A DNA stretch of 37,155 bases from Gammaproteobacteria bacterium (GTDB taxonomy: Bacteria > Pseudomonadota > Gammaproteobacteria > UBA6429 > Thiohalophilaceae), in assembly GCA_023135195.1 (NCBI GenBank), contig JAGLTQ010000077.1, positions 1-37,155 of the forward strand. Direction: 5' to 3'. The stretch's first letter is position 1; each line of letters opens with the position of its first letter. The notes under the pieces were generated by a model. It searched no databases. It worked only from the letters and a program-made list of their open reading frames with translations, and had not been told where the DNA came from. Positions 1-5,727 of the stretch are shown in pieces. The translations under genes were made by a program, and so were the position numbers.

Positions 1-552
1 ACATGGTGGATTCGTCAGGCAATTACCCGTTCAATTGCTGATCAGGCGCGTACTATCCGTATCCCTGTTCACATGATTGAAACGATTAATAAACTTAATC
101 GTATTTCACGTCAGATGCTCCAGGAAATGGGCCGCGAACCTACACCTGAAGAACTATCTGAACGTATGGAAATGCCAGAAGATAAAGTACGTAAAGTACT
201 CAAGATTGCTAAAGAACCTATCTCTATGGAAACACCCATTGGTGATGATGAAGATTCACATCTTGGTGACTTCATTGAAGACTTTAATGTTGAATCTCCA
301 GTTGATTCTGCAACAGCAGGTGGCCTTGGAGAAACGGTACAGGGTATTCTTGAAGGCTTAACCGCTCGTGAAGCTAAAGTTTTACGTATGCGTTTTGGTA
401 TTGATATGAATACTGACCACACTTTAGAAGAAGTGGGTAAACAGTTTGATGTTACACGTGAACGTATTCGTCAAATTGAAGCCAAGGCGTTACGTAAATT
501 GCGTCATCCAAGTCGCTCAGACCATTTGAGAAGCTTTCTTGATATTGAATAA
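1..552 (+). CDS. rpoD: RNA polymerase primary sigma factor RpoD, C-terminal part
   Basis: Principal sigma-70 factor, which directs core RNA polymerase to housekeeping promoters. The frame is open from the first base, so the gene starts outside the window; about 183 residues are visible. It begins inside region 2.4 ([17 protein letters not shown], which reads the -10 element), runs through region 3 ([16 protein letters not shown]) and ends in region 4 ([17 protein letters not shown] and the helix-turn-helix [20 protein letters not shown], which reads the -35 element). The [12 protein letters not shown] linker and the ending [20 protein letters not shown] are RpoD-type rather than RpoS-type. 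An intrinsic terminator follows 21 bases after the stop. Confidence 0.97.
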
Positions 553-573
553 ACTATTTAGATAATCTAAAAC

Positions 574-600
574 AAAAAAGCACTTTCGGGTGCTTTTTTT
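574..600 (+). terminator. Intrinsic terminator of rpoD
   Basis: AAAAAAGCAC and GTGCTTTTTT pair around a TTTCGG loop, giving a 10-bp stem ending in a T run. It lies 21 bases after the rpoD stop and before the tRNA promoter. Confidence 0.9.
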
Positions 601-640
601 AATCTAGTACCTCACTAATAAGCTTTGTGAAGTATAGGGT

Positions 641-669
641 TTAACTAGTCCATAACTATGTAGTAGAAT
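641..669 (+). promoter_or_regulatory. Probable sigma-70 promoter of the tRNA gene
   Basis: TTAACT at 641-646 and TAGAAT at 664-669 are separated by 17 bases and resemble -35 and -10 hexamers. The predicted start of transcription near 676 is a few bases before the mature tRNA 5' end, as is common for tRNA genes. Inferred from sequence only. Confidence 0.5.
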
Positions 670-680
670 AGCCTCGTTTT

Positions 681-757
681 GGGCCTTTAGCTCAGCTGGT
701 TAGAGCATCCGACTCATAATCGGCAGGTCCCCAGTTCAAGTCTGGGAAGGCCCACCA
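681..757 (+). tRNA. tRNA with anticodon CAU, probably tRNA-Ile2 (lysidine type)
   Basis: Complete cloverleaf with encoded CCA. The acceptor stem GGGCCTT/AAGGCCC (681-687, 747-753) is perfect, the D stem is GCTC/GAGC, the anticodon loop is CTCATAA (713-719, CAT at 715-717) and the T arm is CCCAG-TTCAAGT-CTGGG. The top pair of the anticodon stem (27:43) is a T-C mismatch. CAU can mean initiator Met, elongator Met or Ile2. The C4-G69 and C5-G68 pairs, the anticodon arm CGACTCATAATCG and TTAGCTCAG resemble E. coli tRNA-Ile2, in which C34 is changed to lysidine by TilS so that AUA is read. Elongator tRNA-Met cannot be excluded. Confidence 0.9.
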
Positions 758-771
758 ACTAAAGTAAAATC

Positions 772-807
772 AAAGGCTTACATCATTATTGATGTAGGCC
801 TTTTTTT
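772..807 (+). terminator. Intrinsic terminator after the tRNA
   Basis: AAAGGCTTACATCA pairs with TGATGTAGGCCTTT around a TTAT loop (14 bp, one G-T pair), followed by more T. It should end the tRNA transcript before the intron remnant that starts directly after it. Confidence 0.88.
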
Positions 808-811
808 ATAG

Positions 812-980
812 ACCAAAGGACTTTCGGAAGGTGCAGAGACTACCTGAGAACTGGTTTTTAATAAAAACCAAGCGTTCTTAATAACAGGCTAGAGCGTCCC
901 GCCCCCTAACAGACAAATTTAACATTTGTACTGAGGGAGATGAGATAGTCCACACTCGATAGAAATATCAAGATTATGTG
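812..980 (+). ncRNA. 3' half of a group I self-splicing intron (5' half absent)
   Basis: The block CGGAAGGTGCAGAGACT at 825-841 is the conserved R region of group I introns and closely matches the bacterial tRNA-Leu intron. ATAGTCC at 945-951 is the S region. P7 forms from GACTA (838-842) and TAGTC (946-950). P8 forms from CCCT-CAG-ACAAAT (904-918) and ATTTGT-A-CTGAGGG (924-937). P9 is GATA-GAAA-TATC (958-969). The terminal guanosine is G980, directly before the 3' exon. CC/GG around 813-826 may be the tip of P6. A composite hairpin at 843-888 is inserted between P7 and the P3 strand. P1 to P5 and the guide sequence are not found upstream: the tRNA terminator lies there instead. As it stands, the intron cannot splice in cis. 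Confidence 0.87.
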
Positions 981-1020
981 AATCCCTTGGTCCTTGGTTC
1001 GAGTCCAAGTAGGCCCACCA
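981..1020 (+). pseudogene. 3' half of a second tRNA (exon 2 of the interrupted tRNA, probably CAU/Ile2)
   Basis: Starts directly after the intron's terminal G. AA are loop positions 37-38, TCCCT is the 3' strand of the anticodon stem, TGGTC the variable loop, CTTGG-TTCGAGT-CCAAG a perfect T arm, then TAGGCCC, ACCA. The intron site lies just after anticodon position 36. If the lost 5' exon ended in CAU, its last base U fits the U-G pair required at group I 5' splice sites, and tRNA-Ile(CAU) introns are known from Azoarcus. The missing 5' half should start GGGCCTA and have a GGGA-type anticodon stem. The intact upstream tRNA cannot supply it, because its anticodon stem would have three mismatches. 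Either a decayed gene or one half of a split tRNA. Confidence 0.83.
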
Positions 1021-1079: not shown

Positions 1080-1915
1080 CTACCAACCCCAGATAACACC
1101 CTCCAGTAAATTGTTATAACCGGCATATTCCTTCTTTTTCACCGGAATAAAGCTGGTCGCTTTACCTGCAAAACGTTTTAATAATCCTTTTGTTGTAACA
1201 ACGACGTCACCAATGGTTAGTGACGTTTTAATGCGTAACTTCAGTTCAGGGCTAATACGTTGACTCACAGATATACCCTGATTAGGCATCGCTTTACTTT
1301 TAAATATTGTTTTAATTTTTGAACGTTGCTGAATATTTAATTTTTTATTGTGAAATGTTGTACGCAATACAGCCGCATCACATTTTTTCCTGTCTTTAAA
1401 AGAAAGACTGTTAAATACTTTCTTCATACCACCTTTAATGCCTTTAACTACCGGCTGACGAACCGGGTTCCGATAATGATCAAGCACTGATAAAGTTGAT
1501 AAATTCGGAGGCGAAATACCACAAATATTTTTGCCAATTAAGTCCCCGGCCTTTTTAAATTTTTTTTTCATTTTACCCGTAACTAATACAAACTGAAGTT
1601 TACCTGGTAATTTTACTAATACTTCATGCCCAAATGTTTCTCTCTCCAGGAAATAAAGTGCGGTCCATCAAAAATAATATCGTATTTATCATCTCGCATT
1701 TCATGTTGGTATGTCATCCAGTTACCTGGATGTTTATAAGTTACTATGACACCAAGTAATTTTGATAAATGTTGTGCAATTGGTCCATATATTTTCATAC
1801 CCGCCTCAGCTGTTTCTCGTGGCGGTGCAGACAAAATCAAATTCCGGGCAAAAGCAGTAGAAACAATGTTACCAAGCATAAGTAACAACAAAATTAATCT
1901 CTTATAATTTTTCAT
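1080..1915 (-). pseudogene. PhnD-like phosphate/phosphonate-type binding protein, interrupted by a single-base frameshift
   Basis: Periplasmic substrate-binding protein of the Phosphonate-bd family (PhnD-like). The first frame (1616-1915) encodes a signal peptide ending in TAFA and the conserved start NLILSAPPRETAEAG-YGPIAQHLSKLLG, then YDIIFDGPHFISW. It stops after KHLGMKY. The next frame continues the family without a gap: HEVLVKLPGKLQFVLVTGK, then the rest of lobe 2 to the tag stop at 1080. The whole span is one base short of 279 codons, as expected for one lost base, most simply from the GGG tract at 1629-1631. The start at 1915 follows a good ribosome site (AAGGGAGA). No ABC permease or ATPase is adjacent, so the substrate is unknown. 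Either a recent pseudogene or a sequencing error. Confidence 0.8.
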
Positions 1916-2182
1916 TATCTATCTCCCTTCTACCCTTAGGGTGCTTGCAACCTCCTTTTGCAACTCACCTTGAAGTTTTATTATTTTACAGAATAGATTA
2001 ATCCGAACTGGAATATTGAATAAAACAGATTTAACATTTACAAACAATAACGCCCTGCATTTTACAGTGTAGAATAATGAAAAATGCAGTAGTATTAGGG
2101 ACATAAGATAAGTGTTGTAAAATAGGACGTTAACTGAAAATATATTTTCAACATCAACTGTACAAAAAAATGGAAAATATTT

Positions 2183-3883
2183 GTGACATTACCCGTTCTT
2201 AACTTGCCATTACTGAGTTCTAAACGACCAAAGCCCTATATTAAACCTAAAAAGTTTCGTTTATGGCTAAATGGACTTCCTGTTGGTAATGTACAAAAAT
2301 CATCTCAGATTGTATTACAGCAGCTGAAAATCCTGAATCAATCACGTTATCCTTATTCAGAACGCAGCCAATTGCTTGATGCTTTACGTCCAACAATTCG
2401 ACAATTACTACTCTCATTAAAGCAACCCCTACACCGTGCAAATCTACCTCTATCGGATGAAAATAATTTAGTTGCTCAACTTATTCAGGATCTACTCAGT
2501 GAAATTGCCCATGGTTATAAACTCATAACCAGTGATTTAATGGAAAAAAACTCACGCAAAGAAAACGATCAGCTTTTATTACGAGAATCTATTTATTTAA
2601 GTATTCAATATCTTGCCCGTAGCATAGTTGAAAGTTACCTTATTTATACAGCGCCACAATATGATATATGGCGTGAACTACACCAACTCTATCGTTATGC
2701 TGAATATGAACATATTCAAAATGAAGCGATTGATGATCCTTACCCGGATTATGTTTTACCCGTCCAATACACTATTGATTTAGTTTATAAACGTATTGTG
2801 CTGTTATCTCTCTCAGCGCCTTACCATTTAATGCAAAATGAGGCTGAAGATATTTACTATCTCGTTTCTGCCTGGACATCCGTTTGCGAAATACAAGAGT
2901 TAGAAAAAAAGCATATCTCAAATCAATATGGCGTTGATTTTGCCACGGATATGTCACCTCGCTATATTCCCGATAATCTCGAATGGGAACCTGTAGATGG
3001 ACGTGTGATTGATATTAGTGAAGTAAAAGCACGTCTTACTAATCACACTACAAAAATTCTTCGCTTAAATGTTGATAGTGATGATCTCATTAATGATGAT
3101 ACCCCGAGATCACTTAAAGAACGCCAACAGCGCGATATGCTACTTCGGTTGATGGATGCCTGGCACAGTAAGTTAACGCGTGGAACACATCGTGAAGATC
3201 GCGGCGCAAAATTACGCATGGCACTCGGCCTTAATGCTTGTCATTTTTATTGCTCTAACAAAGCTACATTCACCCCCGAGATGGACGAGCTAAGACTTAT
3301 TTCATCCACTGAAAATAAACAAGCAACTGTTTTTGCAAATATCTATCGTGAAGCGCTGCACAAAGATCGCATACATGAAAATAACGCTTACCCTATTAGC
3401 CCATGGCAACAACATAATATTAGTCATACCGGTCTCGCGCTAAGTTGTGGTGAGTCTTGTAATAATATGAATATAAAGGTGGGTGAAGTTGTTAGTTATC
3501 TCTTTGAAAGTAAAACAGGTTTACGCTGGAAAATTGGTATCATTCGATGGGTGCATATTAATGAAGAAAATAACATTGACATGGGAATTATGAACCTCTC
3601 ACATAGCGCTGTTCCCATTGCTATTAAAGCAGTAAAAGGATTAGGCAAAGGTACAGATTATTTCCGTAGCCTACTAGTACCAAAACAGGTTTCTATCCGT
3701 CAACTTCGTAGCATCATTGTTCCATCCATGCTCTATGATATTGGTACCGCGCTATCCGTTAATATGAAAACAAAGTTGTTCTACATTAAGCTCAGAAAAC
3801 TCATTATTTCTACTGGCAATATAGCCATGTTTGAATTTGAGACATTAGAAAATGCTCCGGTAGATTTATCACAAGAAATTTAA
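2183..3883 (+). CDS. Uncharacterised 566-residue protein, possibly with a C-terminal PilZ-like fold
   Basis: I do not firmly recognise this protein. It has no signal peptide or membrane span. The N-terminal half (about 30-290) is leucine-rich and probably helical, with RPTIRQLLLSLKQPLHR and LLRESIYLSIQYLARSIVES. The C-terminal part (about 435-530) looks like a small beta barrel: VGEVVSYLFE, LRWKIGIIRWVH, NIDMGIMNLSHSAVPI. This resembles the degenerate PilZ-like domains of large gammaproteobacterial cytoplasmic proteins, but the canonical RxxxR and D/NxSxxG c-di-GMP residues are not clear. The start is GTG; no strong ribosome site is visible and an earlier alternative is not evident. Its stop overlaps the end of the convergent DUF255 gene by four bases. 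A link to c-di-GMP signalling is inference only. Confidence 0.75.
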   Translation: MTLPVLNLPLLSSKRPKPYIKPKKFRLWLNGLPVGNVQKSSQIVLQQLKILNQSRYPYSERSQLLDALRPTIRQLLLSLKQPLHRANLPLSDENNLVAQLIQDLLSEIAHGYKLITSDLMEKNSRKENDQLLLRESIYLSIQYLARSIVESYLIYTAPQYDIWRELHQLYRYAEYEHIQNEAIDDPYPDYVLPVQYTIDLVYKRIVLLSLSAPYHLMQNEAEDIYYLVSAWTSVCEIQELEKKHISNQYGVDFATDMSPRYIPDNLEWEPVDGRVIDISEVKARLTNHTTKILRLNVDSDDLINDDTPRSLKERQQRDMLLRLMDAWHSKLTRGTHREDRGAKLRMALGLNACHFYCSNKATFTPEMDELRLISSTENKQATVFANIYREALHKDRIHENNAYPISPWQQHNISHTGLALSCGESCNNMNIKVGEVVSYLFESKTGLRWKIGIIRWVHINEENNIDMGIMNLSHSAVPIAIKAVKGLGKGTDYFRSLLVPKQVSIRQLRSIIVPSMLYDIGTALSVNMKTKLFYIKLRKLIISTGNIAMFEFETLENAPVDLSQEI

Positions 3884-5727
3884 TTAGCTGGATAGTAACT
3901 CTGAAACTCATATAAAATAGAAATTTGTGAGGCGTACCAAAAAGGCTGTTCTTCTAAATCATTATGCCCAACTTTTAACGCATTTAATATTTTCTTTTTT
4001 AAGAAAATATTTTTGTACTTCACTGCTTCTTTTAAGGAAACGTTAAGCAATATTGAAGAAGCAGAGGGTAATACACCATCTGAAATAACCTCTTCACCTT
4101 CACCGTACTTTAACAAGCTATTTTCGGCTAATAACCAGCCTTGCTTGTTATGAAAACGATTCCATGCTTGTTCCATTATCTCTTCTAACCATTTTTTATC
4201 TTTTTTGTTAAATGAATAATCAAGCCAATGAGACAAGCCTTGTGCAACATAGGCATAGTCTTCTAATCCAGCCTCACCTAATACATGCTTGCCTTTAATA
4301 GCCCTTACCAATTTCTTCTTAATCCATAAGTTTTTATGGATATAGTCTTTTATCTCTTTTGCAGCTTTAGCATAAGGCTCACTTTTAAATTGTTTTGCTG
4401 CTTTTGAAAAAGCAGTTAAAGCCAGCCCGTTCCATGCTGCAAGTAATTTATCATCTCTGGGGACATTACGTTTATTACGTTCCAGTAACATCTTTTTCTT
4501 TGCTGAATTAAAGTCATTTTTTGCTTTTACAGAAGAAATTTTCAGTATTTTAGCTGCATCTGTTGCATTCATTATTTCTACTAAATGGTAACCACCTTCC
4601 AGATCTGCGGGACCTTCCAGTTGCCACATTAACTCAACAACTTTTAATTCATCTTGATTAAGTAATTTTTTAAGTTCATCACGCTGCCAAAGATAATAAC
4701 CACCTTCTACACCTTTATTATCAATGGCAGAAAGACTCGCAATATAAGCACCGGATTTAGATCGAAAAACATTAAGCAAAAAATCCAGAGTGTTTTGAGC
4801 AATCTTTGAATATTTTTCGCTCTTAAATACTCTGGCTGCATCCAGGTATAATGATGCTAACAATGCATTATCGTAGAGCATTTTTTCAAAATGAGGGATT
4901 TGCCAGTTTGGATCAACCGCATAACGGAAAAACCCTCCACCAAGTTGATCATTTAGACCCTGTGAGGCCATTTTATTTAAAGTAAGCAGTAAAAATTGCT
5001 TTAAATCTTTATCTGGACTATTTTCATATGATTTTAACATTACGGTTAATTGAGGGAATGAAGGAAATTTATTCTGTTGTCCAAAGCCCCCCGCCATGTC
5101 ATCAGCCATAGTGGTCGCTTGTTTTAAAAATCGTGTTATATATTTTTGACCTAGCCCAGTAGGTAACTTATTTAATGTGTTTTTTGTTCTTATTGAAAGT
5201 TCCTTTGTTGCATCTTTGGCCATACTTTCAAGAAGATGCTTTTCTTGTTTCCATTTTGACTCTATATTTTTTAAAACTTCTATAAAATTTGAAGCTGGTA
5301 AATAAGTCATTCCCACCAGGGGATAACCATCCGGTGTAATAAAAACATTTAACGGCCAACCTGCTCGACCCTGAGTACGTTCAACAAAATCAATTAAATG
5401 ACTATCTAATGCACTATTGATTTCTCTATCAATTTTTACCGGTATAAAATTAGAATTTAATATATTTGCAACAATTTTATTTTTGTAGCTCTCACGCTGC
5501 ATCACATGGCACCAGTGACAGGAAAAATAACCACTGGAAACATATATCAATTTCCCTTCTTTTTTTGCTCGTGCAATGGTCTCTTTATTCCATTGCTGCC
5601 ATGCAACAGGATCAGTTCCATGCATCGCTAAATAAGGGGAAGCATGTTGCTGTAAGGTGTTTTTTAAATTACCTGCATAGACATGAAATGACAAATTAAT
5701 TAAGAAGAACGTTATTAAATGCTTCAT
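3880..5727 (-). CDS. Exported thioredoxin-fold protein, DUF255 / YyaL (spermatogenesis-associated 20-like) family
   Basis: 615 residues. Residues 1-18 are a signal peptide (hydrophobic ITFFLINLSFHVYA). The N-terminal DUF255 thioredoxin fold (about 20-180) carries the family marks HASPYLAMHGTDPVAWQQW, the CHWC motif at 70-73 (YFSCHWCHVM) and GRAGWPLNVFITPDG. The rest is the long helical (alpha/alpha) barrel region seen in the family, with GGFGQQNKFPSFPQ, GLNDQLGGGFFRYAVDPNW and PHFEKMLYDNALLAS. Most family members are cytosolic; the signal peptide places this one in the periplasm, where the CxxC may act in disulfide exchange. Substrate unknown. A lone gene: 170 bases separate it from tatC, and it converges with the 566-residue protein. 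Confidence 0.9.
   Translation of the reverse strand: MKHLITFFLINLSFHVYAGNLKNTLQQHASPYLAMHGTDPVAWQQWNKETIARAKKEGKLIYVSSGYFSCHWCHVMQRESYKNKIVANILNSNFIPVKIDREINSALDSHLIDFVERTQGRAGWPLNVFITPDGYPLVGMTYLPASNFIEVLKNIESKWKQEKHLLESMAKDATKELSIRTKNTLNKLPTGLGQKYITRFLKQATTMADDMAGGFGQQNKFPSFPQLTVMLKSYENSPDKDLKQFLLLTLNKMASQGLNDQLGGGFFRYAVDPNWQIPHFEKMLYDNALLASLYLDAARVFKSEKYSKIAQNTLDFLLNVFRSKSGAYIASLSAIDNKGVEGGYYLWQRDELKKLLNQDELKVVELMWQLEGPADLEGGYHLVEIMNATDAAKILKISSVKAKNDFNSAKKKMLLERNKRNVPRDDKLLAAWNGLALTAFSKAAKQFKSEPYAKAAKEIKDYIHKNLWIKKKLVRAIKGKHVLGEAGLEDYAYVAQGLSHWLDYSFNKKDKKWLEEIMEQAWNRFHNKQGWLLAENSLLKYGEGEEVISDGVLPSASSILLNVSLKEAVKYKNIFLKKKILNALKVGHNDLEEQPFWYASQISILYEFQSYYPAN

What the first reader, a model, noticed from the sequence alone, without database searches (positions are those of the whole stretch)
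812..1020. Orphan 3' half of a group I intron fused to the 3' half of a tRNA, next to an intact CAU tRNA
The sequence shows P7, P8, P9, the R and S core blocks, the terminal G and a perfect tRNA 3' half with CCA, all well paired. The 5' exon and P1-P5 are not here; the terminator of the upstream tRNA takes their place. Group I introns in tRNA-Ile(CAU) and tRNA-Leu are known, but always contiguous as far as I know. Two readings: a deletion left a relic, or the gene is split and the 5' half lies elsewhere and splices in trans. The stems look undamaged, which favours either a recent event or retained use. A split bacterial tRNA joined by a trans-acting group I intron would be new.
Basis: partly seen in the sequence, partly recalled or inferred. 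Interest (0 to 1): 0.8.

Follow-up and report, generated by a model that had tools for sequence, protein, structure and literature searches.

The report
Relic of a replaced intron-bearing tRNA
The orphan half intron and half tRNA is the leftover of an ordinary self-splicing tRNA gene whose front half was overwritten by an intact intron-free tRNA gene from a related bacterium; there is no sign of a tRNA assembled from two separate pieces.

Summary
Window 820-980 is the 3' part of a group I intron (P6 3' strand, P7, a P7.1/P7.2 insertion, P3 3' strand, P8, P9, terminal G). It is fused to the 3' half (981-1020) of a tRNA-Ile2(CAU). It lies just behind an intact CAU tRNA (681-757) and that tRNA's terminator (772-803).

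The trans-splicing reading is not supported. Twelve same-family genomes, two of them congeners, carry the whole intron in the tRNA-Ile2(CAU) gene; where rpoD could be seen upstream it lies just in front. They score 79-89 bits against Rfam Intron_gpI in the six tested; the window scores 27.6, cut-off 50. Four other congeners have the same tRNA without an intron. No 5' piece exists in the window's genome (86% complete), nor in congener G003 (93% complete), which carries the same truncation.

The intact tRNA has the isoleucine identity pairs C4:G69 and C5:G68. It is 98.7% identical to tRNA-Ile2 genes that sit behind rpoD in other gammaproteobacteria. So an intron-free tRNA-Ile2 replaced the intron-bearing one and cut off its front half.

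The stems look fresh because the change is recent here. The window and G003 share a block at 531-864 with no mismatch, while flanking rpoD four-fold sites differ by about 40%.

The parts
73..552 (+). 3' end of rpoD (sigma-70), the conserved upstream neighbour of tRNA-Ile2(CAU)
   Evidence: ORF list; rpoD just upstream of this tRNA type in dozens of gammaproteobacterial loci
531..864 (.). Block without a mismatch in the gapless alignment to congener G003 (L007), whose flanks are diverged
   Evidence: Pairwise alignment; 268/268 identical for 545-812; 4-fold divergence of flanking rpoD 9/22
641..669 (+). Promoter-like site (TTAACT-17-TAGAAT) in front of the intact tRNA; resembles the promoter region of this tRNA in congeners
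   Evidence: number found is at the chance level; comparison with L005, L006, L020, L021
681..757 (+). Intact intron-free tRNA with CAU anticodon, tRNA-Ile2 type (C4:G69, C5:G68), the replacing gene
   Evidence: ARAGORN, Rfam tRNA 68.5 bits, identity pairs, 98.7% identical to tRNAs behind rpoD in other gammaproteobacteria
772..807 (+). Intrinsic terminator of the intact tRNA (14-pair stem 772-803, then T run)
810..819 (+). Junction zone; doubtful match to P4' of the intact intron
   Evidence: Alignment A1
820..980 (+). 3' part of a tRNA-Ile2 group I intron: P6 3' strand, P7, P7.1/P7.2 insertion, P3 3' strand, P8, P9, terminal G
   Evidence: Alignment with 14 intact introns; Rfam
837..842 (+). 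P7 5' strand (R block), pairs with TAGTC inside 945-951
843..888 (+). P7.1/P7.2-type extension (CCTG...CAGG, GAGAAC/GTTCTT, TGGTTTTT/AAAAACCA); G003 lacks 20 nt of it between TTAATAA repeats
893..901 (+). P3 3' strand; its partner (CGGGATG in relatives) is absent
902..937 (+). P8
955..972 (+). P9
981..1020 (+). 3' exon: 3' half of the original tRNA-Ile2(CAU) with CCA
   Evidence: Identical to the 3' half of the intron-free tRNA of G002, G005, G006, G007

Best explanation
812-1020 is a non-functional relic. The ancestral locus was rpoD, promoter, then a tRNA-Ile2(CAU) gene with an ordinary contiguous group I intron in the anticodon loop. An intron-free tRNA-Ile2(CAU) gene with its own terminator, from another gammaproteobacterium, recombined into the locus. 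It took over the promoter and removed the 5' exon and the 5' part of the intron, up to about P4-P6. The new tRNA now decodes AUA after lysidine modification by TilS; the stranded 3' part is neither transcribed nor spliced. The truncated allele was then exchanged by recombination between two species of the genus, which gave the mismatch-free block 531-864. Shown: relic structure, intact relatives, absence of a 5' half from the held sequence, tRNA-Ile2 identity pairs, the shared block. Inferred: direction of transfer, order of events, the recombination mechanism, silence of the relic.
For: Full introns in 12 of 40 same-family genomes including congeners G001 and G004. The six intact loci tested score 79-89 bits against RF00028; the window 27.6 and G003 28.0. 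No 5' half in G000 or G003 by BLAST or by a P3-P4 pattern with 3 mismatches, which finds G001 and G004 exactly. Intron-free allele in four congeners. The intact tRNA has C4:G69 and C5:G68, unlike the genome's elongator Met tRNA; these are the dominant E. coli TilS identity elements (PMC12514573). tilS is present and AUA is used (59 of 366 Ile codons in 12 window ORFs). The same tRNA type lies behind rpoD widely. Recent event: no mismatch at 531-864 against G003, and relic positions 885-973 differ from the functional G001 intron at 5 of 88 sites, as functional G001 and G004 differ (6 of 87), whereas 31% of rpoD four-fold sites differ (P = 5e-9 under that neutral rate).
Against: G000 is a fragmented draft (86% complete, 5.5% contamination), so a missing piece is not strictly excluded. 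The relic is unchanged at all 72 columns that are invariant in intact introns, which by itself would also fit retained use. No genome with both the donor tRNA and its flanking terminator was found outside G000 and G003, so the donor and the exact breakpoints are unknown. No RNA data.
Confidence: 0.92

Rival explanations
1. A split tRNA-Ile2: the 5' exon with P1-P5 lies elsewhere and the two RNAs assemble and splice in trans.
For: All retained stems and all 72 invariant columns are intact in the window.
Against: No 5' piece in G000 or G003, though each search recovers the intact gene in G001 and G004. A strong terminator lies upstream and no promoter-like site was found for 812-1020. An intact tRNA-Ile2 is present. 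G003's copy has lost 20 nt and has changed P3' bases.
Confidence: 0.015
2. Assembly artefact: a misjoin between an intact-tRNA contig and an intron contig.
For: Drafts in hundreds of contigs; the shared block is short and identical.
Against: The same junction is in two different congeneric assemblies with different flanking sequence on both sides, and both flanks follow the expected rpoD-tRNA synteny. A chimera would need two matching switches.
Confidence: 0.03
3. An integrative element entered the tRNA gene, carried the replacement tRNA, and was later lost; the relic is the same but the vehicle differs from plain homologous replacement.
For: Intact CAU tRNAs of this type occur on viral contigs. 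Second 3' fragments of the intron-tRNA exist in G015 (4 kb downstream of the intact copy) and G037.
Against: No integrase-like or phage-like gene was recognised by eye beside the window copy or in the G015 interval (no profile search was run). The replacing tRNA matches chromosomal copies behind rpoD. The missing segment is not what a clean attachment-site crossover leaves.
Confidence: 0.07
4. The relic has a new role, for example as a stable processed RNA.
For: High conservation relative to neutral sites.
Against: Explained by recent loss; downstream of a terminator; already damaged in G003.
Confidence: 0.02

Closest known systems
Group I introns in the anticodon loop of bacterial tRNA genes, such as the Azoarcus pre-tRNA-Ile intron (Rfam RF00028; review PMC3984707)
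   Same: Intact relatives of this locus are contiguous group I introns in the anticodon loop of tRNA-Ile2(CAU), with P3-P9 core and terminal G.
   Different: The window holds only the 3' part; relatives carry a P7.1/P7.2-type extension.
Trans-spliced group I introns of organelles (for example Prasinoderma mitochondrial LSU rRNA, PMC3873408; Haplopteris, PMC10027690)
   Same: A piece of a group I intron with its 3' exon, without the rest.
   Different: No partner piece was found here, and the gene product is supplied by an intact gene.
Archaeal split tRNA genes (PMC3218864)
   Same: A tRNA half gene.
   Different: Those have both halves and use a protein endonuclease; here one half only, and it is a remnant.

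Membership tests
Group I intron (RF00028) | P7 guanosine-binding helix, P8, P9, terminal G | tested here: met
Group I intron (RF00028) | P3 with both strands | tested here: not met
   3' strand 893-901 only; partner CGGGATG absent
Group I intron (RF00028) | P1 with guide sequence, P4-P6 domain | tested here: not met
   Absent from the window; present in 14 relatives
Group I intron (RF00028) | Score above the curated cut-off (50 bits) | tested here: not met
   27.6 against 79-89 in intact relatives
Trans-spliced split tRNA | A 5' half elsewhere in the genome | tested here: not met
   genome 86% complete, congener with the same arrangement 93%
Trans-spliced split tRNA | Both pieces transcribed and joined | not testable with these tools
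   No RNA data; no promoter-like site for 812-1020
tRNA-Ile2(CAU) (for 681-757) | CAU anticodon, C4:G69 and C5:G68, tilS in genome | tested here: met
tRNA-Ile2(CAU) (for 681-757) | Lysidine at C34 and charging with isoleucine | not testable with these tools
   needs biochemistry

The most novel reading that the evidence does not exclude
The 3' piece is still used: a 5' piece in the unassembled part of the genome splices to it in trans, giving a split bacterial tRNA joined by a two-part group I intron.
Probability: 0.015. Interest if true: 0.85.

Novelty: new member of a known kind. Interest (0 to 1): 0.2.

Why it matters
It is a modest but clean example of how a bacterium can lose a tRNA intron: not by precise excision, but by overwriting the gene with an intron-free relative, leaving a fresh-looking fragment behind. 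It also warns that an undamaged half intron need not mean trans-splicing; the block shared without mismatch by two diverged species explains the freshness. The claim of a split bacterial tRNA falls.

Tried and rejected
Phage and plasmid collections gave only matches to the tRNA part (about 22-30% of the query, best places about 72-89% identical), no copy of the junction. A search for the donor tRNA with its terminator found only the tRNA body outside G003: matches end within the tRNA or soon after it. G060 looked like the reverse case (5' half only), but its contig simply ends there. G015 and G037 second fragments were looked at as possible integration scars; no integrase-like gene was recognised in the ORFs of G015. 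G047's hit is a complete intron in a tRNA gene, apparently with another anticodon. Literature searches gave no report of a trans-spliced or half-deleted bacterial tRNA group I intron; the library is partial and most of those papers were seen as titles and abstracts only.

Full report
What is there. The window starts in rpoD. Behind it come an intact CAU tRNA (681-757), its terminator (stem 772-803), and then 820-1020: the 3' part of a group I intron joined to a tRNA 3' half with CCA. P7, P8, P9, the P3 3' strand and the terminal G are present. There is also a hairpin insertion between P7 and P3 (843-888) of the P7.1/P7.2 kind. Rfam's Intron_gpI model gives 27.6 bits, below its cut-off of 50, and forces the upstream terminator into the missing 5' side.

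Relatives answer the question. Searching relatives with 808-1020 finds long matches that begin at 820. In congeners G001 and G004 and in ten other genomes of the family, the same stretch is preceded by the missing part: GGGCCTATAGCTCAGTTGGTTAGAGCAGGGGACTCAT (or a close variant), then P1 to P6. Where the upstream sequence shows it, rpoD lies in front. The intact introns tested score 79-89 bits. So the gene at this place was an ordinary, contiguous, intron-bearing tRNA-Ile2(CAU). Congeners G002, G005, G006 and G007 have the same tRNA without an intron. Presence and absence of the intron therefore vary within the genus.

No 5' half. A 170-nt probe of the G001 5' half finds G001 and G004 fully, and in G000 and G003 only short matches to other tRNAs, the known relic and chance pieces. 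The conserved P3-P4 stretch ACGGGATGAATTCAGGGAAACC, with three mismatches allowed, has no match in G000 or G003 and one exact match each in G001 and G004. G000 is 86% and G003 93% complete, so both missing the same piece by chance is unlikely (about 1% if independent; inference).

The replacing tRNA. The intact tRNA at 681-757 is not a methionine tRNA in type: it has C4:G69 and C5:G68, which the genome's elongator tRNA-Met lacks. These pairs are the dominant identity elements for E. coli TilS according to PMC12514573. tilS is in the genome and AUA is used (59 of 366 isoleucine codons in 12 ORFs). Near-identical tRNAs (98.7%) lie behind rpoD in other gammaproteobacteria. The promoter region of the window's copy, by contrast, looks like that of its own genus. 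The simplest account is recombination that swapped in an intron-free tRNA-Ile2 with its terminator and removed the 5' exon and the 5' part of the intron. One-sided homology with an imperfect join on the other side would do this; that mechanism is inferred.

Why the stems look undamaged. Between G000 and G003 the stretch 531-864 has no mismatch and no gap, whereas flanking rpoD differs at 9 of 22 four-fold sites. The truncated allele therefore passed between these species recently. Beyond the block, the relic at 885-973 differs from the functional G001 intron at 5 of 88 positions, as functional introns differ from one another (6 of 87 for G001 and G004), against 31% at rpoD four-fold sites. If the relic had been free of selection since the species split, 5 or fewer differences would have P = 5e-9. 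So the right-hand part was most likely a working intron until recently. In G003 decay has begun: 20 nt lost between TTAATAA repeats and changed bases in the P3 strand.

What was not settled. The donor and the direction of transfer are unknown. 810-819 may be a remnant of P4' or part of the donor flank. Reads and RNA were not available. An assembly misjoin is unlikely, because the same junction is in two assemblies with different flanks on both sides.

Verdict. The feature is real, and ordinary in kind: a relic of a known type of tRNA intron, left by gene replacement. Trans-splicing is not supported.

Noticed in passing
G000:C40, about 2148-5173 (seen in L054, L060, L062, L069): Dense array of a dozen or more tRNA genes in 3 kb, many of 73-75 bases (possibly without an encoded CCA end) and some odd; looks like a phage or a mobile tRNA array, perhaps not host chromosome.
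   Followed up: no
G015:C24:41262-41384 (L296 4763-4885): A second, orphan 3' fragment of the intron plus tRNA 3' half, 4 kb behind the intact gene, its T arm interrupted by an insertion; an ORF (4387-4824) reads into the fragment.
   Followed up: partly
G037:C149:7210-7295 (L295): Another orphan 3' fragment (from the P3 3' strand to the tRNA end) on a separate contig from the intact copy; its downstream flank resembles that of the intact copy.
   Followed up: partly
window 1080-1915, minus strand: Two adjacent ORFs (1616-1915 and 1080-1571) look like one secreted substrate-binding-type protein broken by a frameshift near a T run; similar sequence continues in G003.
   Followed up: no
L177, just after its tRNA at 476-552: A decayed tandem copy of the CAU tRNA follows the intact one behind rpoD, another sign that this site collects tRNA duplications.
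   Followed up: no
G047:C134 (L297, minus strand): A related group I intron in a tRNA gene that apparently has another anticodon (5' exon ends near GGACTCTTG), next to tRNA-Pro, tRNA-Arg and tRNA-His genes; the intron family seems to have moved between tRNA genes.
   Followed up: no
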